From a virus, in IMG/VR virus record IMGVR_UViG_3300017989_000351, positions 1 through 28,406 of that record: 28,406 nucleotides of DNA; one strand, given 5' to 3'. Under the pieces are notes generated by a model. The model searched no databases, was not told where the DNA came from, and saw only the letters and a list, made by a program, of their open reading frames with translations. Of the stretch, positions 4,868 through 28,406 are shown in pieces. Positions within the stretch are counted from its first letter, which is position 1; each line of letters starts with the position of its first letter. The translations under genes and the position numbers were made by a program.

Positions 4868-7800
4868 CTAAATAACGCTGCAGGTATCCCCATCGCAGAA
4901 TTTAGTACCACTAGCATCTTCGAAGATGTAACGAGACGTATCAATAGGCTTGAGGCTATTATTGTAAGCAGTCACCTCTTCCTCTGTAGCCGCCTCATAA
5001 GGAGGCTGGATATGGCCATGGTCCAACTGCGGTAAAAAGCTGATACCCTTCAACTCATCATCAAATGCTGCCAAGATGCTAGGAATCTGCGACGCTTCCT
5101 CTGGTGTAAACTGGACAGTACACGATACTTGATTATCGGCCCAGTAGCGCTGATAATCAACAGCGTTCTTAATCTGCTCCCAGATCGATACCTCTGCGAC
5201 CGTCGCAGCATTCGGTGCACTAACACCAAACTTAGCAACCATCGTCCTATCATCCTTAGCATCAATTTCAACATCATAACCAGCATCGACCAGTATCTTG
5301 ACAAGGATGCTATCCGCAGCAATGCGTACACGACGCCAATAATGCCGCGACGGTGCGATAGTATAATGGATGCCAGCCGTAGCGCCAGCACAAAGAGAAA
5401 CAGTGCCACTTGGTTTAACAGACGTCTTCTTGATTGATCTCTTGCAACATAACCAATCGGCGTAGATCTTGTCCCAGTTACAGACAATTTTATAACCTTT
5501 GTCGCAGAACTCATCAAGAACCTGCCTGCGGCCAAACTTCTCAAACGCCTGTACTATGCCACTCTGCGACAGGCCGATTCGTCTGTTGCGTAGGAGCACC
5601 GAGTTTGTGTACCGGCAGTGTGTCGGCAGCAGTGTGACCGTTTTACCATATAAATAGGCGAATTTCAGTGTCCTATGGTAATCGGCGGCGTTGTCATGAT
5701 GCGTCGGGAACGTCTCAACTAGACAGCATAATTCATGGCTCTCGAGCGACTGCTCCACGCATGGGTTGGCACCCATAGCCAACCGATCAATACCCTCCTG
5801 GTACCCATCAATCATGCGACCGTAGTTCCGCACATTGTGAAGCCATAGATATCCGGGTTCGCCATTTATAGATGTCTGCTTCGCGAGCTTGTTGTAGGGC
5901 ATCCCAACATCAGCAAACACCGAATTATTAGATGCCCAACGATGAGATTCATACTCATCGGGGTAGATGTTGTTGTCCTTCATAGTAATGTATGCAAGAT
6001 CGTCGGGCATCCCAAATGCGATCTCCGCAGTTCGACGAACATTACCAGCAACAACGCACTTGCCGATGAAGTTCATCATATCGACGATATCAACACTCGT
6101 AAGACGACTATCCGGTCGTCTCAACACACTTTCAAGCAATTCCCGCATCATCTCGTGGAGACGAATCAGAACACCAGGACCGGAAGCCTTACCACCGAAC
6201 CCTTTAATGGGTGTGTTGGCCGGACGTATCTGGCTGTAGTCATACTGCAGACGGCCAAGCTCGGGCTGGTGCGTATAGGACAACACCAGAAGCCTAACTG
6301 AATTAGCCCAACCCTCCCTAGTATCAGGAATGACGTAGATCTTCTCTTCATTGTGGGGCTTAACAATCTCGAGTTTGCCAGCACCTCGCGTGTCGAAGCC
6401 AATACCAACACCAAGCATCGACATGTCCGTCATGAAATAAAACGGCTCTGCAGGATCTTTATCTATGTCGATTGTCGATATGAATCCACAGTTGCCAGTA
6501 AGAATATTTCCATCGAGAGTAAATGCATAATACTCTGGCACTTGCGGGCAAAATACTTCCTCAAACCTCCCGCTATCGTCAACCGAATCAACATACCAAA
6601 AATTATACATCGGTATAGCCCTGCCGCGATTCGCAACTAGGGCCTCAAACCGTTCACGATGGTCAGACAGCAGGAAGAAATCGTCGCACAAATGGTCGGC
6701 AAACAAGGCAATACGATAACCTATGAACTTCTTCGTTTTACCGTCATGCTTAACCGTCTGAAGACTCTCAGTTATGTCATGAACACCGATACCAAGTATG
6801 GCACAGACCGATTTCACAAGTTCCAGGTTAGATCTCTCTGAGCTAGCAATACGACACGTACCCTTTTTGGTTATATCACCATCTGCCGCAAAATACCCAG
6901 CAAGCCATCCATACAGATATGTGCGGGCCTCACGGATATCTGGTGCATTTCTGAACGCTCTTGGCAGATCGGCAACACGCTTAGCACCTTCTGACCCCCG
7001 CTCTGGTGCATCAGTCACATGGAATTGCTGGAAATATTTCAACAATTCTTCGTTCTTTTGCCCGCATAGATATAAGTATGTGCCGTGGTCCTCAGATGCA
7101 GAGCCAGTGGTGCCATCGCCGAAGCATATGCCGTGCATTATGCCAACGGGACTTGGCCGCAGCTTATTGTTATTTATACCTTGTCCGAAATTAGCAGCAA
7201 GACGCATGTTAGGTTTCAACTGGTCTGTCGAACACTCGCGAGTCCTATATGTCCCATGATCGTCACCGCCACCAACAGTAACAAGCTGCCGCGATTTCGA
7301 TTTTACAAACCACCTATGATCTGGTGTTGCATAAATCGTTTTGCGGTGCCTGCCCCTACGCAAAACGATCTTTTTCAATTCCTGTTCACCAAATGACCGG
7401 ATGGGTGCATTAACCCATTTGCCGCCAGTCGTCAGCACCGTCTGAGTGGTGCCGACCAGATCGCCGATTTTCTTTATGCCATCTCTGGTAATAATCTCGG
7501 TTTCAGCCGCAAAGCAGTTGTTCAACGCGGCACTGCCACGCTCCCACATGAATTTGGTTCCCATCGCCCAAAGCCCACGACCCGGAGGAAGGAACTTGAA
7601 TTCCCACATCCTTGTGAACATCTCTTGGGCAGATACCTGTGCACGTTCAAGTGTCCAAGGAATGTGAAGCATATCGCAATAGCGGCGTTGGATCTCGTAG
7701 CATCCCTCAACAACACGCTTGAACGTGTCCATTGCCGATTCTTTTGTTCCATCTTCCTTGATTCTCGAGTATGTGCGATAAAAGACAAACTCACCAAGGC

Positions 7801-7966
7801 CATTGAATCCAAAATTTGGCTTCTTACCATTGAAGCGGTTAAGGAATCGTTCGTCTAGTCTAAAGTAATCGTCGTCGCTAAACCCGTTATTATGCAAGCC
7901 GTTAAAATATGCACGAGGTTCATCCTTAACTTCTTCCCTTGTTAGCGTATGCACAACTCTCTCCAA
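4868..7966 (-). CDS. nrdJ: Adenosylcobalamin-dependent (class II) ribonucleotide reductase with an intein
   Basis: The precursor is 1032 residues; removing the intein (151-492) leaves a 690-residue monomeric class II reductase similar in size to the Lactobacillus ribonucleoside-triphosphate reductase (739). It makes deoxyribonucleotides using a B12-generated thiyl radical and does not need oxygen. Visible elements are the GEFVFYRTYSR and LPPGRGLW regions, ALNN/C with the first redox cysteine at 493, GNVRRTAEI at 641-648, and NPCVE with the probable thiyl-radical cysteine 736 and Glu 738. The partner redox cysteine is C747 in ELCCLVETFP. The C-terminal shuttle pair is C1024/C1029 in FCDGDTC. 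All expected active-site cysteines are present, so the spliced enzyme should be active. The start overlaps the upstream gene by 25 bases. Correspondence to Lactobacillus C119, C408, C419, C731 and C736 is by motif, not by computed alignment. Confidence 0.92.
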   Translation of the reverse strand: MERVVHTLTREEVKDEPRAYFNGLHNNGFSDDDYFRLDERFLNRFNGKKPNFGFNGLGEFVFYRTYSRIKEDGTKESAMDTFKRVVEGCYEIQRRYCDMLHIPWTLERAQVSAQEMFTRMWEFKFLPPGRGLWAMGTKFMWERGSAALNNCFAAETEIITRDGIKKIGDLVGTTQTVLTTGGKWVNAPIRSFGEQELKKIVLRRGRHRKTIYATPDHRWFVKSKSRQLVTVGGGDDHGTYRTRECSTDQLKPNMRLAANFGQGINNNKLRPSPVGIMHGICFGDGTTGSASEDHGTYLYLCGQKNEELLKYFQQFHVTDAPERGSEGAKRVADLPRAFRNAPDIREARTYLYGWLAGYFAADGDITKKGTCRIASSERSNLELVKSVCAILGIGVHDITESLQTVKHDGKTKKFIGYRIALFADHLCDDFFLLSDHRERFEALVANRGRAIPMYNFWYVDSVDDSGRFEEVFCPQVPEYYAFTLDGNILTGNCGFISTIDIDKDPAEPFYFMTDMSMLGVGIGFDTRGAGKLEIVKPHNEEKIYVIPDTREGWANSVRLLVLSYTHQPELGRLQYDYSQIRPANTPIKGFGGKASGPGVLIRLHEMMRELLESVLRRPDSRLTSVDIVDMMNFIGKCVVAGNVRRTAEIAFGMPDDLAYITMKDNNIYPDEYESHRWASNNSVFADVGMPYNKLAKQTSINGEPGYLWLHNVRNYGRMIDGYQEGIDRLAMGANPCVEQSLESHELCCLVETFPTHHDNAADYHRTLKFAYLYGKTVTLLPTHCRYTNSVLLRNRRIGLSQSGIVQAFEKFGRRQVLDEFCDKGYKIVCNWDKIYADWLCCKRSIKKTSVKPSGTVSLCAGATAGIHYTIAPSRHYWRRVRIAADSILVKILVDAGYDVEIDAKDDRTMVAKFGVSAPNAATVAEVSIWEQIKNAVDYQRYWADNQVSCTVQFTPEEASQIPSILAAFDDELKGISFLPQLDHGHIQPPYEAATEEEVTAYNNSLKPIDTSRYIFEDASGTKFCDGDTCSVI
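6491..7516 (-). mobile_element. Intein with LAGLIDADG homing endonuclease inside the reductase
   Basis: Residues 151-492 (342 residues) of the reductase precursor interrupt the conserved ALNN/C motif. Splicing block A is CFAAETEIIT, starting with Cys 151. Block B has ATPDH at 213-217 (the TxxH motif). Block F and the C-terminal splice motif are YYAFTLDGNILTGN, followed by Cys +1 (493). Two LAGLIDADG-type helices are seen: VGIMHGICFGDG at 274-285 and LYGWLAGYFAADG at 351-363, so a homing endonuclease is probably included. The penultimate residue is Gly rather than the usual His, a known variant. The +1 nucleophile is also the first redox-active cysteine of the enzyme, so the reductase cannot work until the intein leaves. 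Confidence 0.9.
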
Positions 7967-15740: not shown

Positions 15741-18700
15741 CTAACCTCCATCCGGCTCGCCGCCACCCTTAGCACCACCGCTACCGATACGATTCCTCCT
15801 GCCGGACCTCTTCACATTCGTCAGTGCTTCTAATATTTCAACATCTCTATTCTTATCACGCAGCTCACCAAGTATTTCTACTATTTCACCCAATACGGCA
15901 GTCTGTTGTCTTGTTGCTGTACTGTTCTCCCTACCTTGACGCCACGTATTAGGTGATTCTTGATCAAAAACTTGTGTTGATGGTATCTCGCCTGGCATCT
16001 CAACACCCTCTGGCAATGCCAACCCCGCACTGGCTTCAGATGGTGTCGATGTCGCAGCCGGTAACTCGGTGACAGGTGCCATAGCCTCATCTATCTTAGA
16101 CGTCTCATCAGATATTTTGGTTACACCCTCCTTGATCGTCTTAGATATCTCTTCAAAAACATTCTCGATAAACGACTTGGTATTGAGCATCGACTCAAAG
16201 CCAAGTATCAATTTGCCAGAAACCGAATGCACAATCTTAACAAGATTGCCGATGGCTTTTTCAATCGACTTACGATCAAGAGCGGTATTGATGTTCTTTA
16301 GACCAGTCACGAGCGATTTGATGCCATCGACTATATTAACGGATGCGTCACTTATACTGATCTCATTAATATCATATAATGCATCAGCAAGGTTCATAAC
16401 GCCAGTGCCAGCATTGGATAATGTATCAAGCTCAGAAACAGCAGCAGTGATCTCCTTCCTGGACTTGTTGATATCCGCAGCAAACGTCCTGACAGCTCCA
16501 CCAACACCCTTCAGCCTGGTGTAGTTGACATTAGTAAGTGAATCAAGAGACTTAGATAGCATATCAAACGATTCAGCAACTGCAGACAGCCTAGACAGGC
16601 TTATCAACCACAGTGATACACTAAATGCAGTAAATGCAAGTCCTATTCCAACAGAACCAAGCATCATCAAACTAGCGGCGGCGATCAGCATAACACTAGC
16701 AGCGATGACGGTACCAAGGAACGTCAACAATCCTAACGAAATCTCCTCTAGCTGCGCGACACTAACGCCAGCCATCGAATCAATCGCACCGGCTATTAGC
16801 TTCAGACCAAACCCAAACGCAACGGCGGCGACACCAATAAGTATCGCGGCAACAGACAACCCAAGCAACGCTACAGTCAGTACAAGTATCCCAGGTGCAT
16901 AGGCAACACTAGCACCGCCAAGCACAGCTATCGCACCAGCTATAGCCAGCAACGTATTAGTAGCGTTCGGTCCAGCATCACCCATCATCTTGATGGCGGC
17001 ACCAACAAGCCACAGGCCAGCGCCAATCAGAACCATGCCTATACCAGCCGCGATTGCAGCTCCAGCCAGGCTAAGTAATGAAGTAGTGACAGCTATTAAC
17101 CCAATACCAAGCAATGCACCCATAGCTCCAAGCTTAGCTAGCGCAACCATGACCTCGCCTATGGCTGTTGCTGCACCAGACCCATGCTCTGAAATCGTAG
17201 CCAACGAACTAGCTATAAGTGTGAACCCAACACCCATCAATGCTATACCAGCACCCGCAAGCAGTGCAGCAGCACCAATGGCAAGCAACACACCAGCAAC
17301 AACAACAAGAGCGGGTGCCATGTAATATCCAGCGATACCAAGTGCGATTATCGCAACTGTCATCGCAACCAGTGCCGCGATAGCACCCCAACCGGCCTCA
17401 GCAACAGACACAATGGCGGCACCCATCATTTTGAATCCGACACCAACCATTATGGTCGCTGCACCAACAGCCAAGGCCGCAGCGGCTATACTAAGCAGCA
17501 CACCAACCACTATCCACCCAACTGGTGCCAATAGATATGCAGCAACAGTCAATCCGCCAAGCACAACAATCAGCGCTACCAATGGCCCGATTATAGCCCA
17601 GCCAAGTGACGCCATAGTAACAAATGACGAAGCGAGTAGCTTGAACCCATACCCAACCATCACGACAGCAGCACCAAGCGCAAGCATCACCGCAGCTGCG
17701 GACAACAACAGACCAGACAATGTAGTCATTACCGGCACAGACGCTGCGGCGGTATATGTCAACGCTATAATAGCAACGGCGAGTGCGCCAAACACGACCA
17801 CCATAATGAGTAGTGGTATCAACGCACTAGCACCCAGATCAGCAATCATTTTAAACGCTATAGCCACCATGAGAACACTAAGCCCAACACTGGCAACAGC
17901 AGCGGCCAATGCCAATAGCTTAGCTGGACTCAGAACCTTCATAAATTGGCCAAGCAAGATTATGCCAACCTTAATGACGGCATAAACAACTCCTATCCCA
18001 AGTAGCGTCTTAATAACACCGCCGAACGTTATATCAAATCCTTTAAGTGCATTCGTTGTACCCTTTACAGCACCGCTCGTGCCTTCAGCTGCATCGGCCA
18101 CTTTACTGACAGCTTCGGCAGTCGCCTCTGCTGGCTTAACAATAGCGGTTAGTGGCCCTGCTGCCTCTGCTACCTTACCAACAGCATCTGCAGCCGCCTC
18201 TGCTGGAGGTGCAATCGCTATCATGGGGTCAATAAACTTGAGTACCGCATCTATAAGTGGCTCAATAACATCCAATAACGCCATGATGTATGGCTTGATC
18301 CTGATGATTAGCGACTGCCAAGCAATAGTGATCTTGTTGAGTATTTCCTCAATCCGTTTGCCCATGTTCAGCATGGACTTTCCATACATCTCATTGAGCT
18401 TATTCTGTTGGTCATAATTCTTCAGCACTGAATCTTGGGCCGACTTAAACTTGTTGAAATCATTTACCGCACCCTCGCCAACAAGCTTGTTGGCATCAGC
18501 CCATGCATAAGTCTCTGCCAATAATTCCTTAGTAACACCAACCTGTGCGCTATATGCTTCAGCCATGTTCAGCATTTGTAACGCACCAGATTCAGAATGT
18601 ATATCAATGTCGCCCAGCTGGCCCGACATCTCATTCATCACGTCCATCAGACCAAGTTGGATTGCGGTAAGCTTGCGCTCAGCACCAGTCAAACCTTCAA

Positions 18701-19796
18701 GTTGTGAATGGAATTTTGCACCCCTAGAGGCAAGTATGTTTTGCGCAACAGCATTGTCTAATAGTGTACTTGTCAATTCTTGCATCGCCCCGACATTGCC
18801 CTTTGTCTGGCCAGCAAATGCAACCATCCTATTTTGATAATCCTGTACCATCTCCATGTTCTTACGGCCCCAGATGAACATTCTGACCCCAGCCTTCTCA
18901 GTTTGCTCGGCCATCAGTGACTGCATCTGTTCAGTCGTAAGGCCAGCCTGCTCCATAGCATATGTCATCTTGGCTAGAACACGTTCGGTGGCCTGAACAC
19001 CAAACCCAGCAAGCCTCATCTTGCGTGCCCAGTTGGCAGTAGCATCTGCACTGACACCAGTAACATGCGAGAATTGGGCAGTCATACCAATATACTTCTC
19101 GAGGTCACGTCCTGGTACACGCATAATTTGCCCAAGTATCTTGCCAGCTTCCGTCGCCTCAGTTTTTAAGACACCATACTCAACGGCTGCCCTATTGACC
19201 TTAGTGAGCATTTCATCCATAGACCCCTGTGATCTGAAAGATGCATACTGAAACTGTGCTGATTCCTCATTCAGCGCATGGAATGCCGCCCTAATAGCGT
19301 TCATACTAAATAGCACACCTCCGAGTGCAAGCGCCGATTTAGCCGTTTTCTTTGTGAAGTCCCACCACGATTCATTTACCTCATCAACATGATCCCTCAT
19401 CATAGCGATATTCTCAGAGATATCGCCAGTGTCAATGACTATCGTGGCCAAATAGTCAATCATTTCTTGAAGGCGTTCAACCACTTGGCCCAGAGCAATA
19501 CTGATTTGTTGCTGCGCCTCAAGCATCTCAGTAGACGGTGTAGTTGTCAACGTAAGATTGTCACCAAGGGTAGCGGCACCAGTATTTATCGCAGTAATGT
19601 GTGTGTTGACCTGTTGCATGCTGTCAGATAATGTCTGAGCGGCTTGTGCGAGGTCAGTATTAATAGTTGTCGATAATGTCTGGATATCGGTGTTTATCTG
19701 ATCAATCTGCTCAGATACAGTATCTAACTGTCCAATCGCCGCCGTCGCGTCGATGTTGAGAGCAAGATTCAGGGCATAATCATTAATATCCGCCAT
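15741..19796 (-). CDS. Tape measure protein
   Basis: This 1351-residue protein is the longest in the window and sits within the tail cluster. It sets tail length and occupies the tube lumen. The N-terminal 130 residues are coiled-coil (QLDTVSEQIDQINTDIQTLS). Residues 145-480 resemble the common globular part of phage tape measures. Residues 530-585 are Ala/Glu/Lys-rich. Residues about 595-1070 are almost wholly hydrophobic Gly/Ala/Val/Leu with exact 70-residue repeats. The C-terminus is helical, then Ser/Pro/Gly-rich (GAKGGGEPDGG). If largely helical at 0.15 nm per residue it would span about 200 nm, an inferred upper guide to tail length. The hydrophobic part may form a membrane channel during DNA entry. 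The ATG at 19794-19796 has a GAGGAG only at a distance. Confidence 0.92.
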   Translation of the reverse strand: MADINDYALNLALNIDATAAIGQLDTVSEQIDQINTDIQTLSTTINTDLAQAAQTLSDSMQQVNTHITAINTGAATLGDNLTLTTTPSTEMLEAQQQISIALGQVVERLQEMIDYLATIVIDTGDISENIAMMRDHVDEVNESWWDFTKKTAKSALALGGVLFSMNAIRAAFHALNEESAQFQYASFRSQGSMDEMLTKVNRAAVEYGVLKTEATEAGKILGQIMRVPGRDLEKYIGMTAQFSHVTGVSADATANWARKMRLAGFGVQATERVLAKMTYAMEQAGLTTEQMQSLMAEQTEKAGVRMFIWGRKNMEMVQDYQNRMVAFAGQTKGNVGAMQELTSTLLDNAVAQNILASRGAKFHSQLEGLTGAERKLTAIQLGLMDVMNEMSGQLGDIDIHSESGALQMLNMAEAYSAQVGVTKELLAETYAWADANKLVGEGAVNDFNKFKSAQDSVLKNYDQQNKLNEMYGKSMLNMGKRIEEILNKITIAWQSLIIRIKPYIMALLDVIEPLIDAVLKFIDPMIAIAPPAEAAADAVGKVAEAAGPLTAIVKPAEATAEAVSKVADAAEGTSGAVKGTTNALKGFDITFGGVIKTLLGIGVVYAVIKVGIILLGQFMKVLSPAKLLALAAAVASVGLSVLMVAIAFKMIADLGASALIPLLIMVVVFGALAVAIIALTYTAAASVPVMTTLSGLLLSAAAVMLALGAAVVMVGYGFKLLASSFVTMASLGWAIIGPLVALIVVLGGLTVAAYLLAPVGWIVVGVLLSIAAAALAVGAATIMVGVGFKMMGAAIVSVAEAGWGAIAALVAMTVAIIALGIAGYYMAPALVVVAGVLLAIGAAALLAGAGIALMGVGFTLIASSLATISEHGSGAATAIGEVMVALAKLGAMGALLGIGLIAVTTSLLSLAGAAIAAGIGMVLIGAGLWLVGAAIKMMGDAGPNATNTLLAIAGAIAVLGGASVAYAPGILVLTVALLGLSVAAILIGVAAVAFGFGLKLIAGAIDSMAGVSVAQLEEISLGLLTFLGTVIAASVMLIAAASLMMLGSVGIGLAFTAFSVSLWLISLSRLSAVAESFDMLSKSLDSLTNVNYTRLKGVGGAVRTFAADINKSRKEITAAVSELDTLSNAGTGVMNLADALYDINEISISDASVNIVDGIKSLVTGLKNINTALDRKSIEKAIGNLVKIVHSVSGKLILGFESMLNTKSFIENVFEEISKTIKEGVTKISDETSKIDEAMAPVTELPAATSTPSEASAGLALPEGVEMPGEIPSTQVFDQESPNTWRQGRENSTATRQQTAVLGEIVEILGELRDKNRDVEILEALTNVKRSGRRNRIGSGGAKGGGEPDGG
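16617..17876 (-). repeat. Six exact 70-residue hydrophobic repeats within the tape measure gene
   Basis: Residues 641-1060 of the tape measure protein divide into six consecutive 70-residue units (210 bases each). The position equivalent to the Phe in GFK recurs at residues 648, 718, 788, 858, 928 (Leu) and 998 (Leu), always 70 apart. The first is in IAFKM, the next ones in VGYGFKL, VGVGFKM, VGVGFTL, GAGLWL and GFGLKL. Each is followed by a short polar turn (for example MASLGW, VAEAGW, ISEHGS, MGDAGP) and two hydrophobic helices. The protein units are diverged and the DNA copies are not near-identical, so the duplications are old. Confidence 0.85.
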
Positions 19797-21514: not shown

Positions 21515-21952
21515 ATGAATATCAAAGAACTAGACCTGCTCACAAAGAATACACCATATTATTCAAGCCGCACGCTGGAAATTAGAACAGCTTCTATGTT
21601 TGTACCAAAAGACGATACAGACGAGGCACTGGAAGAGTTAGAGCGGCTGCAACGCGAAATAGAAGCAGATACCGTAACATATATCAAAATAAAAGAACGA
21701 GTCATGGCAGCTAGCGAGTCACCTGCCATACCACAAAATCAAGCCCCATTCATCGACATGCTAGTCAATCGCGCTGTTAAGAATGTCGATAGGCTAGCTA
21801 GAGATCTGGCGTACGTTAAACGCAAGATCACAGACATCAAGATTAAAAGAGATACCCCACTGAAAAAGAAGAAAAACGACTCTTTCTTCGACACACTCTG
21901 TGTCGCTGCCTGCGGGCTTCTGCTTCTAGGATGGTTTTGGGGTGGCGATTGA
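21515..21952 (+). CDS. Unknown protein with coiled coil and C-terminal membrane segment
   Basis: This 145-residue protein starts at an ATG with TAGGAG seven bases upstream. Residues 35-75 and 90-120 are charged helices likely to form coiled coil (ALEELERLQREIEAD; RLARDLAYVKRKITDIKIK). A KKKK cluster near residue 120 is followed by TLCVAACGLLLLGWFWGG, a short hydrophobic C-terminal anchor, so the protein probably sits in the inner membrane with most of its mass in the cytoplasm. Function is unknown; a lysis or host-takeover role could be imagined but nothing shows it. Its 3' end overlaps the convergent primase gene by 27 bases. Confidence 0.75.
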   Translation: MNIKELDLLTKNTPYYSSRTLEIRTASMFVPKDDTDEALEELERLQREIEADTVTYIKIKERVMAASESPAIPQNQAPFIDMLVNRAVKNVDRLARDLAYVKRKITDIKIKRDTPLKKKKNDSFFDTLCVAACGLLLLGWFWGGD

Positions 21953-23005
21953 TTTACTAGACAATCTGTCTACAATCCCAGTCAGCTTCTTCTTCTCCAT
22001 AAACGTCAGCTGAACCACAGAATCGTTGAGTACATCAAGTACCTTGTCCCAGCCGCAGACATACTTGGCAACATCGTTCCAATCCTTCGTTTCATTCTCC
22101 TCATCACCATCCACATAGCGGTACTTTGGTGGCAGTGCATAATACAACTTGTGGCCAAGCTTTTGCAGCTTTGCGGCATTCGACAAGATACTCTTAATGC
22201 CCGCCTCATCATTATCCGGCGCAAGAATTATCCCGTCCTTCGGATTGAACACACGGATCTTCCTGACCTGCATATCACCAAGTATGGCCCCGCCCGAAGC
22301 CACGCACTGATCCTCGAGAGTCTGCCCATCAATTATCGACTCGACAATAATGACATGGCTAGCTGGTTCCACCTGATCGAAACCATACAAATAATCATTC
22401 CTGTTAACACCCGTATCCAGTGGCGGAAACATAAACGTCTTGTTGAGACGCGATCTGCTCTGCCAGTACACTATTTCGTCATATTCATAATATGGCCATA
22501 TGACATCGAACCCCGAATGCAGCATCCCATACTTCTCTACACGACGTTCATCTATGCCTCGGCTAGCCAGCCACTTCAATAGAGTAGATGCTAGTTTAGG
22601 TTGCGAGGAATCTAGAAGAGACTCAGATGCATCGGGAAGGCCGAGAGAGGTATCGTCCGTGGCCTCCTGCTCTTCGGACGTCTTCTGAACCCTCAGAAAA
22701 AGACGTGGATCAGAAGAGGCTCCGAGAACGCTTCTGACGGCATCAAAGAACGAGCAATTCTTGTACAGCTGCACAAACTTCAGGAACGTACATTTCTTCC
22801 GCCTACCACCCGGCCCAGAGCCAACCCACTCATCACCACGCCAGTCATGGCACAGAGCTTTGGTGCAACTAATATTGAAATGATAGCCAGAATCCTCTCG
22901 GAAGGGGTTATTTATGCGAATCTCGTCGCCGCCCTTCCGGGGCTTGTTATCTGGGAACTCACGAGTGACCCAACCGTATATCTGCTCTGGCTTCAGCTTT
23001 TTCAT
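21926..23005 (-). CDS. DNA primase with Toprim domain
   Basis: This 359-residue protein is a phage-type DnaG/gp61-like primase, which makes RNA primers for lagging-strand synthesis with the replicative helicase. The N-terminal part has a reduced zinc-binding module: C47, C52-H53 and C72 in SCTKALCHDW and KKCTFLKF. The Toprim motifs are clear: HVIIVESIIDG with the catalytic Glu at 212, GGAILGD, and IILAPDNDEAG with Asp 254 and 256. A KDWNDV motif follows at 287-292. T4 gp61 is 342 residues, a close match. It is a replication gene embedded among tail genes, 12 bases after the dockerin-like virion gene. No Shine-Dalgarno is seen; the start is preceded by TAGTATTTCA, as for the MazG-like gene. 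Confidence 0.85.
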   Translation of the reverse strand: MKKLKPEQIYGWVTREFPDNKPRKGGDEIRINNPFREDSGYHFNISCTKALCHDWRGDEWVGSGPGGRRKKCTFLKFVQLYKNCSFFDAVRSVLGASSDPRLFLRVQKTSEEQEATDDTSLGLPDASESLLDSSQPKLASTLLKWLASRGIDERRVEKYGMLHSGFDVIWPYYEYDEIVYWQSRSRLNKTFMFPPLDTGVNRNDYLYGFDQVEPASHVIIVESIIDGQTLEDQCVASGGAILGDMQVRKIRVFNPKDGIILAPDNDEAGIKSILSNAAKLQKLGHKLYYALPPKYRYVDGDEENETKDWNDVAKYVCGWDKVLDVLNDSVVQLTFMEKKKLTGIVDRLSSKSIATPKPS

Positions 23006-23017
23006 GTAGCTGAAATA

Positions 23018-24523
23018 CTATCCTGACTTAAGAGCCGCAGCAATGACATTACGCATAGCCTCAGTGGCAGTATATATCCACCGTTCAGGAATCTCTGTGA
23101 TCAGATCATCTAATATCTCTATACCTTCGTGCTCAGCACGAATTCTGGCCTTAGCTGCCTCAAGTTCGGCACGATAATCCTTCACATACACTGACCCAGA
23201 GTTGTCAAGAATAAACATCAAAAACGTAGGGCTATAGTTGCCATTGCTCGTAACAGTGTTGAACATGTCAACTATTTCGTCGGCATAAACCCGAGGAGTC
23301 CTCACGTCAACCCCATCGGGGTTGGTCCTAGGATGCCAAAGATCCGTTGGGCCAGGCAACAGGATATGGTCAGACTCGGACCGGTCTGAATCTGGTGGGT
23401 AGTCACACGTACTACATAAAACTGGCCAAACATCTAAGCCACCATCTGGTCTAAGCGTCCTAGATAAGTGATACGGTTGTATCAATCCGAATCTGACCTT
23501 GATGCCCAGATCGTATGCTTGCCCCGTTATGAGATCAATCCAGTTCTGTTTATCGGCATCATACCTAGATTGAGGGCTACCACCATATGCTATATCCCAA
23601 GCCCTCTGTTGCCCAGCCGCATTCTCTGCGAAAAAGTCAGAGTAATACTCCGTCGCCTCATCATAGATAGCTATGATTACACTACGTTGTAGACGTTGAA
23701 CGGCAGTAGGAATTTCCGGTATAACCTCAGGTGCATCTTCCGACCCACACGGATTGGCATCATATCCAGCCACATCACGACTTGGAAGGATCTCACGTCT
23801 ATAGCAGTTTGGATCTAGAAGCGGTCGGCCATCAACAGTACAAACAGCACCGCACCTCAGAGCACCAGACTGCCCACTAAGTGAACTACCAAGAAGCCTG
23901 AAAATACACGCCTCGAGGTCACAACCAGATGCACCTATATTAGGCCCGCATACCGGACACTCTATTAAATCAACACTTATGAAGCAGACACTATGCTTGT
24001 TCCGGATCGGATCGGACATCTGAATCTCAGTCATTTCCTGCGTCCTAATATCACGCAGGAAGACATGAAATTGAGCAGTTGGTGTTGCGCCGATCCTTAT
24101 AGCCACGTCCTTAGCTGTCTGTATGACTGCCGGATCATATAGATCCCTGTGGATATCGTAGGAATTTACGCTATAGCATGACTCCGCGCTAGCGTCAACG
24201 ACCTTTCCAGAATTTAGGAATTCAGCGAGTTGGCCTAGATCTCTAGTTGTCACAAATCCGTCGCCACTCACATCAACATACGGCTGGCTCTTCAGCTTAC
24301 CAGGCGGCAACCGACCCGTACCGTTAGCACGGATGAAATCGACAAGAGTATCGTAATCATTCTGCGTGACATCGCCAGAGTTCGTTACATCGAACCGATT
24401 AAATGGGTTCTGCCATTTCGACGTTCCAAGACTCACGTTGGCGATACACGTCTCACCACCACGCGGCGTAACAAGTATCGCCTCGACAAATCGAGATTGG
24501 CCTATCTCTGGCGTTATCGTCAT
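23018..24523 (-). CDS. Putative virion protein with dockerin-like EF-hand pair and a MIDAS-like motif
   Basis: This 501-residue protein lies in the tail cluster. Residues 37-105 form a type I dockerin-like module with WQNPFNRFDV and two calcium loops: DVTNSGDVTQND (45-56) and DVSGDGFVTTRD (84-95). Residues 431-450 (FLMFILDNSGSVYV) hold a DxSxS motif at D440, S442 and S444, as in the metal site of von Willebrand A domains, but only about 60 residues follow, so a full vWA domain is not obvious. The middle is unusually cysteine-rich, with CPVC, CDLEAC, CGAVC and CSTC pairs. The start overlaps the previous stop as ATGA. A calcium-dependent adhesion or decoration role on the virion is inference. 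No signal peptide is visible. Confidence 0.7.
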   Translation of the reverse strand: MTITPEIGQSRFVEAILVTPRGGETCIANVSLGTSKWQNPFNRFDVTNSGDVTQNDYDTLVDFIRANGTGRLPPGKLKSQPYVDVSGDGFVTTRDLGQLAEFLNSGKVVDASAESCYSVNSYDIHRDLYDPAVIQTAKDVAIRIGATPTAQFHVFLRDIRTQEMTEIQMSDPIRNKHSVCFISVDLIECPVCGPNIGASGCDLEACIFRLLGSSLSGQSGALRCGAVCTVDGRPLLDPNCYRREILPSRDVAGYDANPCGSEDAPEVIPEIPTAVQRLQRSVIIAIYDEATEYYSDFFAENAAGQQRAWDIAYGGSPQSRYDADKQNWIDLITGQAYDLGIKVRFGLIQPYHLSRTLRPDGGLDVWPVLCSTCDYPPDSDRSESDHILLPGPTDLWHPRTNPDGVDVRTPRVYADEIVDMFNTVTSNGNYSPTFLMFILDNSGSVYVKDYRAELEAAKARIRAEHEGIEILDDLITEIPERWIYTATEAMRNVIAAALKSG

Positions 24524-25442: not shown

Positions 25443-25625
25443 CTAACGACGAGGAATCCTAGGCTTGCTTAGATGTGGAATACTACCGCTCTGCTTCTTA
25501 TTCCGCTCGTTGGCGACACGCTGTAATTCCTCATACCACCACTTACGGTCCTCGGCAGTAAGCATATTCTGCTCTTGCAGACTCAGACTGGCATTGCCGT
25601 CGATCCCGAGCTTGAGAGCGAACAT
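25443..25625 (-). CDS. Small ORF, probable frameshifted extension of the gp26-like protein
   Basis: From its only ATG this ORF encodes 60 residues (MFALKLGIDGNASLSLQEQN at the start, then a WWYEELQRVANERN helix and a basic tail). The frame, however, is open upstream to 25706, through the stop of the gp26-like gene (25663-25665), and contains coding-like sequence (VQKTSDELEKQYQHCLKE) with no ATG, GTG or TTG there. This pattern suggests that it is made mainly as a C-terminal extension of the gp26-like protein by ribosomal frameshifting, as with the paired tail assembly chaperones of lambda (gpG/gpGT) and Mu. Standalone translation is also possible but no Shine-Dalgarno is evident. Confidence 0.65.
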   Translation of the reverse strand: MFALKLGIDGNASLSLQEQNMLTAEDRKWWYEELQRVANERNKKQSGSIPHLSKPRIPRR

Positions 25626-25660
25626 TTCCTTGAGACAGTGCTGATACTGTTTCTCAAGTT

Positions 25661-25686
25661 CGTCAGAGGTTTTCTGGACGAAAAAA
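25661..25686 (-). promoter_or_regulatory. Candidate programmed +1/-2 frameshift site (T6C slippery run plus stem-loop)
   Basis: On the minus strand GGC TTT TTT CGT is read in the zero frame five codons before the TGA of the gp26-like gene; the T6C run is at 25680-25686. A slip of +1 (TTT to TTC) or -2 on the T-run joins the frame of the small downstream ORF. Right after the run, CGT-C-CAGA at 25680-25673 can pair with TCTG-ACG at 25667-25661, giving a 7-bp stem with one bulged base and a 5-base loop. The fusion would be about 434 residues. Confidence 0.55.
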
Positions 25687-26748
25687 GCCTTCGGTGATGG
25701 GGAGCATCACCCGACTTTCGTTACCACATTCAGGACAACCGATCTCAACCTGTGTCATAATACCAGGAGTATTATCGGCAAGCCACTCCCTTATAGTGGC
25801 GAGATCACTAGAGTGCATCCTATCAACAAGCTGCCTAATCTTGTGCCTATCGGTCGACCCAAGGGCAGTGACGATGATCTGCTCTATGTTCTTGGTAAGA
25901 GTATCATCGAGTGGGATATCGGCAGAGAACGACTCTTGACCCGGTGTAGCGGCACCAGGTTCCCTCGCAGGCTGACCCGGCTGCCATTGCTGCTGCTTTT
26001 TCTGGCGCTTAATCATCCGCGCCTTGGAGCCGCCACCGACAGCACGCTTAATTGCACGCTTACCACGTGCTATCGCCTGCGAATCCTTGACCCGAAGGAA
26101 CCTGATTCCAACATTTACATCGCGACCAGCGGCCTTAGTCAGATATGGCAATGTAATGGAAAACGGCTCTTGGCCAAGGCTCTCATTCCCCCAAACAATC
26201 GTTTCAGCAAGTTCATTGAGATCGGCAAGGTGCGTACCAGTAGCCCCGCATTCTTGGTTCGGACATGTGACCATGAACTCGTACACATTGCCGTACGTGA
26301 TACCACGCAGGTAATAGAGCAGGAATACTTGATCACCAACAAGAAGATCAGTTGGTTCAAAACCATCCGGGAATTTGCAGCATGCGTTGATCAGGTAATC
26401 GACCGACTGCCCTGTCTGCGCGAGCCGCGACGTCGCCAGTATACGATCAACATCAGCACCCCAAGGATGAACTTGGATAACACCAGATGTCCAATCGTAG
26501 TAGAGGCCCTTACTAGGCAGAGTTACATCTTCCCATGGGAAGATGTCTTCTCTGGGGGCAGTAACGATCCGATCCAGCAACTCGCCATCGTCCGTAACAT
26601 TCTCGAGCGATTTGGCAAAGCCAATATTCTCATGCTGGTCGAAATGTGCGTCAGGCTCTGGGCCACTCTGCACGTTCTCTTTTTTGGGTTGTTGAGGTGC
26701 GGCTCCACCAGACAGTGGAATTTCCTCTGGTTTGTCTTTATCAGACAT
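25663..26748 (-). CDS. gp26-like baseplate/tail assembly protein (T4_baseplate family)
   Basis: This 361-residue protein matches the gp26-type pattern: VTLPSKGLYYDWTSGVIQVH, then DRILATSRLAQTGQSVDYLI, a PTDLLVGDQVFLLYYLRGIT core with TYGNVYEF, and a cysteine pair in CPNQEC followed by LADLNEL. The first 55 residues are disordered and Pro/Gln-rich. A basic, Gln-rich segment occurs near residue 250. The C-terminus has CPECG and ends MLPITEGFFRPENL, so the two cysteine pairs may bind zinc together. In T4, gp26 is part of the hub or its assembly. Here the place between tail tube and tape measure genes, and the overlapping ORF after it, suggest a tail assembly chaperone. GGAG lies eight bases before the ATG. 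Confidence 0.75.
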   Translation of the reverse strand: MSDKDKPEEIPLSGGAAPQQPKKENVQSGPEPDAHFDQHENIGFAKSLENVTDDGELLDRIVTAPREDIFPWEDVTLPSKGLYYDWTSGVIQVHPWGADVDRILATSRLAQTGQSVDYLINACCKFPDGFEPTDLLVGDQVFLLYYLRGITYGNVYEFMVTCPNQECGATGTHLADLNELAETIVWGNESLGQEPFSITLPYLTKAAGRDVNVGIRFLRVKDSQAIARGKRAIKRAVGGGSKARMIKRQKKQQQWQPGQPAREPGAATPGQESFSADIPLDDTLTKNIEQIIVTALGSTDRHKIRQLVDRMHSSDLATIREWLADNTPGIMTQVEIGCPECGNESRVMLPITEGFFRPENL

Positions 26749-26794: not shown

Positions 26795-27346
26795 CTAAAA
26801 AACTAATTCACCATTAACAACCACATTTGTATTTACTGCCCAGTCATAAGTAACTATTACTTCAACTATCTTTATATCACTAGTAGTGTATGATAATTCA
26901 CCATCACGTATTGTTGATGGCCAGCTGCCATACATAGTCCAATCATATTCAGCCGTCTTGTCAGCATTAAATACAGTAATTTTAGTGTCGTTCTTATAAT
27001 CAGATGCGTATCCAATACCAGCAGCACAATTCCATACTTCAGCACTCCACCCCTCAAGTATTGGCTGCAATAATACACCCTTGCGAGGCATGTCATAAAA
27101 TGTTAGCCTGACATCATCCCACGTAACATCACTAGCATATTTATAATTGAGTGACGCACCCTGAACCTCCTCTTTACCAAAGGCAAACGCTGGCAACGTA
27201 CATTCGCGCAAACTAATTAATGGTAGAAATTTATTCGGTGAAAACCCACCTAGACTAGCAAGCTCCCAAGTATATGTGTAAAACGGTTTCTGCTCCAGTG
27301 GGAGCCCGCTTGGGTCACCGATTGCACCAGCATTGAAACCAGGCAT
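26795..27346 (-). CDS. Tail tube protein paralogue 3 (gp19-like)
   Basis: This 183-residue protein begins MPGFN like its upstream neighbour. It shares the later pattern of a VRLTFYD strand, a helical middle and a C-terminal DWTMYGSWPS ... LSYTTSDIKIVEVIVTYD, which is the arrangement of T4 gp19-type tail tube proteins that stack as hexameric rings. GAGGG lies before the ATG and the start overlaps the previous stop as TAATG. Which of the three paralogues is the major tube subunit cannot be told; the others may cap the tube ends or form its first ring. Confidence 0.75.
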   Translation of the reverse strand: MPGFNAGAIGDPSGLPLEQKPFYTYTWELASLGGFSPNKFLPLISLRECTLPAFAFGKEEVQGASLNYKYASDVTWDDVRLTFYDMPRKGVLLQPILEGWSAEVWNCAAGIGYASDYKNDTKITVFNADKTAEYDWTMYGSWPSTIRDGELSYTTSDIKIVEVIVTYDWAVNTNVVVNGELVF

Positions 27347-27927
27347 TATTCCCTCGGCCCTTCTTCTTCACACTTATCATAAACAAGCGTAAACGTCACA
27401 TCAAGTATGCCAGAGTCAGCATAATCAAGATCGGCAGGATCTACATTCGATGGCCAACATCCGTGCATTTTATATCCCCAAACAGCCCTGCCAACACCAT
27501 CGAGAAGGTCAAGTTCACACTTCTTCTTTACATCATCTGTTACTATGTGTGACCTTTGCAGGTTTATAACAGCTTGACCCCACCATTTATAAATAGCTTC
27601 AGCTGGTGCATCAGTCATTGATACACTGGCAAAATCCTGTTCAAATGAAAAGTTGCCACTCTGCTTCAGCACTTCATAGAACGTGATGGTTATGGGAGCC
27701 CATCTGTTCTTGCCGGGAAAATAAGCCTCATCCTGGCCATGGTGCATAGTGATCTTATCGATCTCTGGGCGTGGCCTGGTAGCTTTATAGGCGAATATTA
27801 ATAGATCTAATCCGCCATTATTATTGAAATCCTTATTGAGTGCTACAAAACGCCAACGGTGCTTACGAGCTGTTTCTACGACCCCAGGCGGGCCTTTACC
27901 GCTGCCGCAAATATTGAAACCAGGCAT
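27346..27927 (-). CDS. Tail tube protein paralogue 2 (gp19-like)
   Basis: This 193-residue protein starts MPGFN and has the gp19-like order: an aromatic first strand, KITMHHGQDEAYFPGK, PITITFYEVL, a helix, then ELDLLDGVGRAV and KMHGCWPSNVDPADLDYADS with a final VTFTLVYD strand. The HHxQ-E-x-FPGK and PITxTxY elements are shared most closely with the partial gene upstream. No Shine-Dalgarno is clear before its ATG, unlike the next paralogue. The 38 bases before it hold no recognisable promoter. Confidence 0.78.
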   Translation of the reverse strand: MPGFNICGSGKGPPGVVETARKHRWRFVALNKDFNNNGGLDLLIFAYKATRPRPEIDKITMHHGQDEAYFPGKNRWAPITITFYEVLKQSGNFSFEQDFASVSMTDAPAEAIYKWWGQAVINLQRSHIVTDDVKKKCELDLLDGVGRAVWGYKMHGCWPSNVDPADLDYADSGILDVTFTLVYDKCEEEGPRE

Positions 27928-27965
27928 TTCATGGCACGTCTAGATTAGCGAAACGACATGAATAT

Positions 27966-28406
27966 CTACGCCACCTGCAACCGCATGGCGCGATCGAATC
28001 GCATCTGGACTTCAATCGTCGCGATCTCAGTCGATGTATAGTCGATATCGCCCCAGTTGTTTTCTTTGGGCCACGTGTTACACAGTCTCCACCGTTCAGT
28101 CGGGACACCAACACCACTAAGCATGGAGAGTTGACCCTCACGCTTGTAGTACCCAGGAATCTGGACAAACGGGGCACCATACTGGCCCTCACCACCGGGC
28201 GAGTTGCCGCCATCGAACCGCGACACGTGCTGAATCCAGTCCCACATGTGGAACGACACATCTGGGCTCTGCTCGGCATCATACCAAGTCATAGTGATCG
28301 GTTCCCAGTCTTGCTTACCAGCAAACCGAGCAACCTCTTGGTTGTGATGCATCTCCGGTTCTTCGAACTTGAAGTTCGGTCGTTGGGCCGATTGCAGGAT
28401 CAACAG
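27966..28406 (-). CDS. Tail tube protein paralogue 1 (gp19-like), cut by the right edge
   Basis: The frame is open to the window end, and by comparison with the next gene about 50 N-terminal residues lie outside. The visible 147 codons carry EMHHNQEVARFAGKQDWEPI, TMTWYDAEQ, ELSMLSG-like GQLSMLSGVG and a C-terminal NTWPKENNWGDIDYTSTEIA followed by IEVQMRFDRAM, matching the two downstream paralogues. A TTG at 28401-28403 is in frame but is not a credible start. It is the first of three tandem tail tube genes. Confidence 0.75.
   Translation of the reverse strand: MLILQSAQRPNFKFEEPEMHHNQEVARFAGKQDWEPITMTWYDAEQSPDVSFHMWDWIQHVSRFDGGNSPGGEGQYGAPFVQIPGYYKREGQLSMLSGVGVPTERWRLCNTWPKENNWGDIDYTSTEIATIEVQMRFDRAMRLQVA

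What the first reader, a model, noticed from the sequence alone, without database searches (positions are those of the whole stretch)
25443..25706. Likely programmed +1/-2 frameshift joining the gp26-like protein to a small downstream ORF
The frame of the 60-residue ORF is open back to 25706, across the gp26-like stop at 25663-25665, with protein-like sequence but no usable start upstream of 25625. A T6C run (25680-25686) lies five codons before that stop and permits a clean +1 or -2 slip, and a stem can form right after it. Tail assembly chaperones made by frameshifting are known (lambda -1, Mu -2); finding one built on a gp26-family protein with a +1/-2 shift would be unusual. The gene lies between tail tube and tape measure, though three or four genes from the latter.
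Basis: partly seen in the sequence, partly recalled or inferred. Interest (0 to 1): 0.65.

Follow-up and report, generated by a model that had tools for sequence, protein, structure and literature searches.

The report
Phage tail chaperone made by +1 frameshift
A phage tail gene carries a conserved slip site (UUU_UUU_CGU) at which some ribosomes appear to jump one base forward and add a second domain, giving the short and long forms of a tail-assembly chaperone; the principle is known, but here the shift is +1 at the kind of site used by influenza A and plant amalgaviruses.

Summary
On the minus strand a gp26-like gene (26748-25663) ends GGC TTT TTT CGT CCA GAA AAC CTC TGA. The +1 frame is open from 25706 to 25446, without ATG, GTG or TTG before 25625. 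Comparison turns the suggestion into a strong case. I collected about 250 relatives, from viral metagenomes and named phages. The small ORF is a conserved helical domain (TAC-C) lying out of frame behind a gp26-family gene: +1 in 111 of 124 clusters, -1 in 13, never in frame. In the window's own clade (41 clusters, contigs up to 408 kb) the shift codon is TTT in 40/40 (background 49%) and the next codon is CGN in 40/40, i.e. UUU_CGN. Variants such as TTC TTT CGC argue against a -2 slip and against polymerase slippage, so the shift is +1. The product is best read as the tail assembly chaperone pair TAC-N/TAC-NC. T4 gp26 and gp51 match the same profiles, and cyanophages use a -1 site at the same place. 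That gp26-family proteins are T4-like chaperones, made by frameshifting in several groups, was proposed by Vladimirov et al. 2022 (not readable here). What may be new is the +1 UUU_CGN version. No protein evidence exists.

The parts
25663..26748 (-). TAC-N: gp26-family protein, 361 aa, normal-termination product
   Evidence: phrog_150 baseplate hub E 1.5e-14; PF12322 T4_baseplate E 3.5e-11; 40-57% identical relatives
25678..25686 (-). slip site TTT TTT CGT; proposed P-site TTT 25683-25681, A-site CGT 25680-25678, P-site tRNA-Phe re-pairs to TTC 25682-25680
   Evidence: read directly; TTT 40/40 and CGN 40/40 in the window's clade
25663..25665 (-). zero-frame stop TGA of TAC-N
25446..25679 (-). 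+1-frame extension, TAC-C (VQKTSDELEK...RIPRR), fused to TAC-N as the 434-aa TAC-NC
   Evidence: blastp E 1.6e-20 and 5e-15 to the +1 peptides of L091 and L092; fusion P0001
25491..25637 (-). conserved helical core of TAC-C (residues 24-72 of the open frame)
   Evidence: TAC-C profile hit (a hold-out profile gives only E 0.04 for the window but 5e-9 and 7.5e-10 for L091 and L092); predicted helices 361-380 and 398-421 of the fusion
25623..25625 (-). first in-frame ATG of the small ORF; lies within the conserved domain, so an unlikely true start
25629..25682 (-). predicted RNA stem(s) after the slip site; possible stimulator, not conserved in L091/L092
26795..28406 (-). three tail-tube-like genes (26795-27346, 27346-27927, 27966-28406) upstream
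   Evidence: PF06841 / phrog_4542
15741..19796 (-). probable tape measure protein (1351 aa), presumed client of the chaperone
   Evidence: length and hydrophobic repeats; no Pfam hit; inference

Best explanation
The locus encodes a tail assembly chaperone in two forms. Most ribosomes stop at 25663 and make TAC-N (361 aa). A minority, with peptidyl-tRNA-Phe on the second TTT of TTT_TTT_CGT and CGT waiting in the A site, slip one base forward (UUU to UUC, same tRNA) and read on in the +1 frame to 25446, making TAC-NC (434 aa). By analogy with lambda gpG/gpGT, TAC-N coats the tape measure protein and the rarer TAC-NC recruits tail tube subunits through its C-terminal helical domain. Shown here by comparison: conserved frame, slip site, homologous extension, +1 direction. 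Inferred: that the slip occurs, its efficiency, and the chaperone role of the products.
For: TAC-C is found behind gp26-family genes in 195 of 202 loci: 181 in +1, 14 in -1, none in frame; 111 vs 13 at 70% clustering. In the window's clade (68 loci, 41 clusters): P-site TTT 40/40 against 48.7% TTT among Phe codons in the same genes (p 3e-13), A-site CGN 40/40 against 63% CGN among Arg codons (about 1e-8, from the counts), no start codon in 19/40. Wide set: TTT in 106/107 P-site Phe codons (p 2.8e-11). +1 re-pairing is possible at the site or the codon before it in 109/111 clusters; -2 is impossible in 14. Only 7/111 have any start with an SD-like motif in the TAC-C frame, against 64/111 for the upstream gene. 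Gene order sheath-tube-TAC-N-TAC-C-tape measure in Mel-JY01, immuto, LIS04 and SP-15. T4 gp26 and gp51 hit the TAC-N profile and the gp51 C-terminus hits TAC-C; gp51 matches phrog_150 full-length. Cyanophages Syn33 and S-RIM44 have TAC-C in -1 at AGT/TCT TTT TTC. The fusion folds confidently (pLDDT 84).
Against: No protein or ribosome-profiling data. CGT is a common Arg codon in this genome (73 of 294), so there is no obvious A-site hunger. No conserved stimulatory structure or SD-like element was found. Some relatives have in-frame starts (21/40), one with GGAGG close by (L092). The fold comparison to the HK97 chaperone is not significant (2ob9, E 2.3, prob 0.20). Related loci are not independent, so the p-values overstate.
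Confidence: 0.92

Rival explanations
1. -2 ribosomal frameshift (Mu-type) instead of +1: same frame, one extra Phe in the product.
For: On T6 itself -2 re-pairing is perfect in the window and in 97/111 clusters; Mu uses -2 for its chaperone (PMC5009743).
Against: TTC TTT CGN (L216, L227, L276, L006, L176, L178, L186), TTC TTT TGG and TTT CTT TGG relatives keep cognate +1 but lose -2 re-pairing; the codon after the run is always CGN in this clade, which keeps UUU-to-UUC +1 possible.
Confidence: 0.06
2. The small ORF is translated separately, by reinitiation or from ATG 25625 or an unusual start.
For: ATG 25625 has AAGGA just upstream; L092 has GGAGG-CA-ATG; 21/40 close clusters hold some start codon.
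Against: 19/40 close clusters and 44/111 wide clusters have no ATG/GTG/TTG before the domain; 25625 would cut off the first helix; +1-frame residues between slip and zero-frame stop resemble those of relatives (FFVQ, FFGL); SD-like motifs are rare (7/111).
Confidence: 0.05
3. Transcriptional slippage on the T6 run makes mRNAs of altered length.
For: T6-T8 runs in most relatives.
Against: In 14/111 clusters the T run at the site is 4 or fewer, yet the frame relation persists; T6 is short for slippage.
Confidence: 0.02
4. Chance overlap, decayed gene or sequencing error.
For: Compact genome with many overlaps; an 87-codon frame is open by chance in about 1%.
Against: Homologous extension in the same frame in some 250 assemblies and in isolated phages.
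Confidence: 0.01

Closest known systems
T4-like tail assembly chaperones TAC-N/TAC-NC (gp26 family; Vladimirov, Gautam, Davidson 2022 Virology 566:9-15)
   Same: Same protein family (phrog_150/PF12322), same short/long logic, same C-terminal domain; T4 gp26 and gp51 hit the same profiles.
   Different: T4 uses two separate genes; cyanophages shift -1 at T_TTT_TTC; here the shift is +1. The paper itself could not be read; whether it lists +1 groups is unknown.
Lambda gpG/gpGT and Mu tail chaperone frameshifts
   Different: Lambda is -1 and Mu is -2 (PMC5009743); no sequence similarity detected; weak, non-significant fold match to the HK97 chaperone.
UUU_CGN +1 sites of influenza A PA-X and plant amalgaviruses
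   Same: Identical core UUU_CGN, same proposed UUU-to-UUC slip of tRNA-Phe (PMC5052127).
   Different: Eukaryotic RNA viruses; here a DNA phage with bacterial ribosomes; the preceding codon is also Phe and the site serves a tail chaperone. Presumably convergent.
Vandenendeviridae (phage Adele) -1 chaperone frameshift at GTTTTT
   Same: Poly-T slip site at the end of TAC-N, with the downstream frame misannotated as a separate gene (PMC12846349).
   Different: -1 direction; different slip core.
Listeria phage PSA / HSTV-2 +1 frameshifts
   Same: +1 direction in a tailed virus; HSTV-2 probably in its tail chaperone (PMC5009743).
   Different: PSA slips at CCC codons (CCC_UGA in the tail gene, CCC_UCC in the capsid gene) of major structural genes; HSTV-2 is an archaeal virus.

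Membership tests
Phage tail assembly chaperone made by programmed frameshift (TAC-N/TAC-NC) | Gene pair between tail tube and tape measure | tested here: met
   Direct sheath-tube-TAC-TMP order in Mel-JY01, immuto, LIS04, SP-15; in the window after three tube-like genes but several genes before the TMP
Phage tail assembly chaperone made by programmed frameshift (TAC-N/TAC-NC) | Second ORF out of frame, overlapping the end of the first, conserved in relatives | tested here: met
   111 +1 and 13 -1 of 124 clusters; 41 of 41 close clusters +1
Phage tail assembly chaperone made by programmed frameshift (TAC-N/TAC-NC) | Conserved slippery sequence under constraint beyond amino acids | tested here: met
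   TTT 40/40 vs 49% background; CGN 40/40 vs 63%
Phage tail assembly chaperone made by programmed frameshift (TAC-N/TAC-NC) | Homology to known chaperones of the group (T4 gp26/gp51) | tested here: met
Phage tail assembly chaperone made by programmed frameshift (TAC-N/TAC-NC) | Fold shared with a solved chaperone (HK97, 2ob9) | tested here: inconclusive
   Foldseek E 2.3, prob 0.20
Phage tail assembly chaperone made by programmed frameshift (TAC-N/TAC-NC) | Fusion protein detected; binds tape measure and tail tube | not testable with these tools
   needs mass spectrometry and pull-downs
UUU_CGN +1 frameshift motif | P-site UUU followed by A-site CGN | tested here: met
   window TTT_CGT; 40/40 close clusters
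UUU_CGN +1 frameshift motif | Shift is +1 | tested here: met
   only by comparison: -2 excluded by 14/111 and 3/40 variants
UUU_CGN +1 frameshift motif | A-site codon is rare | tested here: not met
   CGT is 73 of 294 Arg codons in the window; among close relatives CGC 22, CGT 14. All four CGN codons also occur in amalgaviruses (PMC5052127)
Mu-type -2 chaperone frameshift | Site permits -2 re-pairing throughout the family | tested here: not met

The most novel reading that the evidence does not exclude
A large clade of tailed phages makes its T4-like tail chaperone by +1 frameshifting at UUU_CGN (sister clades at UUU_UGG), the same slip-site logic that influenza A and amalgaviruses reached independently. 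CGN in the A site would then favour +1 slippage on bacterial as well as eukaryotic ribosomes, for a reason other than codon rarity, and within one gene family the shift has switched between -1 and +1.
Probability: 0.5. Interest if true: 0.65.

Novelty: new variant of a known kind. Interest (0 to 1): 0.5.

Why it matters
Most of these genes are annotated 'baseplate hub', with the downstream frame missed or called hypothetical or gp51, so a key tail-assembly protein is mis-annotated in many phage genomes. The +1 site is short and strictly conserved, which offers a bacterial test system for why UUU_CGN promotes +1 slippage, so far known from eukaryotic viruses. The family also gives a natural series (-1 at T_TTT_TTC, +1 at UUU_CGN or UUU_UGG, split genes in T4) for studying how recoding direction changes in evolution.

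Tried and rejected
Close relatives by single-protein patterns for the gp26-like and tape measure proteins in IMG/VR: none. The ten-sequence alignment was too divergent for a pattern scan. Genome-contig scan with the L092 protein: none. tblastn of the small ORF alone in the phage collection: only chance hits. Pfam, PHROGs and NCBIfam give no significant hit for the small ORF in the window. A TAC-C profile built without the window and its near relatives scores the window only at E 0.04, so the window's own membership in TAC-C rests on L091/L092 as stepping stones. A conserved downstream stem: rejected as a shared element, though average structure is mildly raised. Vladimirov et al. 2022 is not held; its abstract is recalled from memory only.

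Full report
What is there. On the minus strand a 361-codon gp26-like gene (26748-25663) ends GGC TTT TTT CGT CCA GAA AAC CTC TGA. The frame one base further on is open from 25706 to 25446, and its first ATG/GTG/TTG is the ATG at 25625. The gp26-like protein hits phrog_150 'baseplate hub' (E 1.5e-14) and PF12322 (E 3.5e-11). The small ORF hits nothing significant by itself. In isolation the open frame is only mildly unusual (about 1% in shuffles, in a genome full of overlaps).

Relatives. Distant relatives in isolated phages and huge-phage genomes already show the pattern: in LR756508, Microcystis phage Mel-JY01, Flavobacterium phage immuto, phage SagM-GXN1, Listeria phage LIS04 and Bacillus phage SP-15 a homologous small domain lies in the +1 frame, open across the gp26 stop. 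In Atu_ph07 and XacN1 it lies in the -1 frame behind T_TTT_TTC or T_TTT_TTT. In LR756511 it is in the -1 frame with its own ATG. In Mel-JY01, immuto, LIS04 and SP-15 the order is sheath, tube, gp26-like, (small ORF), tape measure, the place of a tail assembly chaperone. Scans of IMG/VR with alignments added 80, 80, 38 and about 70 loci.

Frame statistics. A profile of the small domain (TAC-C) finds it behind 195 of 202 complete gp26-family genes: 181 in +1, 14 in -1, none in frame 0. After clustering at 70% identity the counts are 111 and 13. The window's own small ORF was in the seed of that profile. With the window and its near relatives held out, the window scores only E 0.04, but L091 and L092 score 5e-9 and 7.5e-10, and the window aligns to those two with E 1.6e-20 and 5e-15. 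The chain of homology is therefore sound but indirect.

The window's clade. An alignment of the window with L091 and L092 pulled in 68 loci with a complete gene (the three seeds included), 41 clusters at 80% identity, on contigs up to 408 kb. All read into the homologous domain in the +1 frame. In 40 clusters with the site near the stop, the P-site codon is TTT every time, while TTT is 48.7% of Phe codons in the same genes (p 3e-13). The next codon is CGN every time (CGC 22, CGT 14, CGA 2, CGG 2), although AGA and AGG make up 37% of Arg codons (about 1e-8). The preceding Phe codon is free to be TTC (3 of 40). These p-values ignore shared ancestry and so overstate, but the contrast between the fixed and the free codon within one motif is clear. 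In 19 of 40 clusters, the window included, no ATG, GTG or TTG precedes the domain in its frame.

Direction. Relatives decide. TTC TTT CGN, TTC TTT TGG and TTT CTT TGG keep +1 re-pairing (UUU to UUC or UUU; CUU to UUU as in prfB, from general knowledge) but give no cognate -2 re-pairing; this holds in 14 of 111 wide clusters and 3 of 40 close ones. The same variants have short T runs, which argues against transcriptional slippage. The proposed event is therefore peptidyl-tRNA-Phe moving from UUU to UUC while CGU waits in the A site. This is the UUU_CGN motif shown for influenza A PA-X and proposed for amalgaviruses (PMC5052127). All four CGN codons occur both there and here, so a rare A-site tRNA is unlikely to be the whole reason.

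Stimulators. The window has a good local stem after the site (z -2.36), but it is not shared by L091 or L092. Across the clade the 100 nt downstream are on average more structured than shuffles (mean z -1.28, against -0.15 and +0.44 in control stretches), which leaves room for a variable stimulator. Upstream positions are conserved only as amino acids would require.

What the protein is. T4 gp26 and gp51 both match the TAC-N profile and the end of gp51 matches TAC-C; gp51 matches phrog_150 over its full length. In cyanophages Syn33 and S-RIM44 the short ORF annotated 'gp51' is this domain, in the -1 frame behind TTT TTC. Rhodothermus phage RM378 has +1 at TTT TTT TGG and Streptomyces phage BRock +1 at CTG TTT CGC. 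This fits the proposal, recalled from the abstract of Vladimirov et al. 2022 (cited in PMC10885494 and PMC12846349, text not available), that gp26-family proteins are the tail assembly chaperones of T4-like phages, made by frameshifting in several groups and by separate genes 26 and 51 in T4. An AlphaFold2 model of the fused window protein is confident (pLDDT 84), with TAC-C as a helical region. Foldseek finds the gp26 family among viral proteins (SP-15, E 9e-16) but only a non-significant match to the HK97 chaperone among solved structures.

Verdict. The system belongs to a known kind, tail chaperone frameshifting in gp26-family genes. What sets it apart from the cases I could read about is the strictly conserved +1 site UUU_CGN (UUU_UGG in sister groups). 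Whether that has been described could not be settled because the key paper is not held. No step has been shown experimentally.

Noticed in passing
window 4868-7966 (-): B12-dependent (class II) ribonucleotide reductase gene that appears to hold an in-frame intein (weak LAGLIDADG_3 hit at residues 353-394; junctions near NNC-FAAETEI and ILTGN-CGF).
   Followed up: partly
window 26795-28406 (-): Three consecutive tail-tube-like genes (PF06841 or phrog_4542), resembling the tripled tail tube locus reported for Vandenendeviridae (PMC12846349).
   Followed up: partly
window 21926-23005 (-): A TOPRIM primase-like gene sits inside the tail module, next to a convergent plus-strand ORF at 21515-21952.
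   Followed up: no
window 23018-24523 (-): Protein of 501 aa between tail genes with a weak dockerin type I / EF-hand-like match (E 0.001, below the Pfam cut-off).
   Followed up: no
L054: A member of the otherwise +1 group with TTC TTC TGG whose TAC-C domain lies in the other (-1/+2) frame: an apparent switch of shift direction.
   Followed up: no
L192, L193, L195, L197, L198, L202: Small clade with +1 TAC-C but no TTT run (YTA TTY AAT CCC AGT); it must use another +1 site, perhaps CCC_AGU.
   Followed up: no
L183, L184: The usual FF slip site is absent near the zero-frame stop, yet a TAC-C domain follows in the +1 frame; a TTT followed by C lies further upstream.
   Followed up: no
L213, L214 (cyanophages Syn33, S-RIM44): The short ORF annotated gp51 'baseplate hub assembly catalyst' is only the TAC-C part in the -1 frame; it is not equivalent to full-length T4 gp51.
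   Followed up: yes
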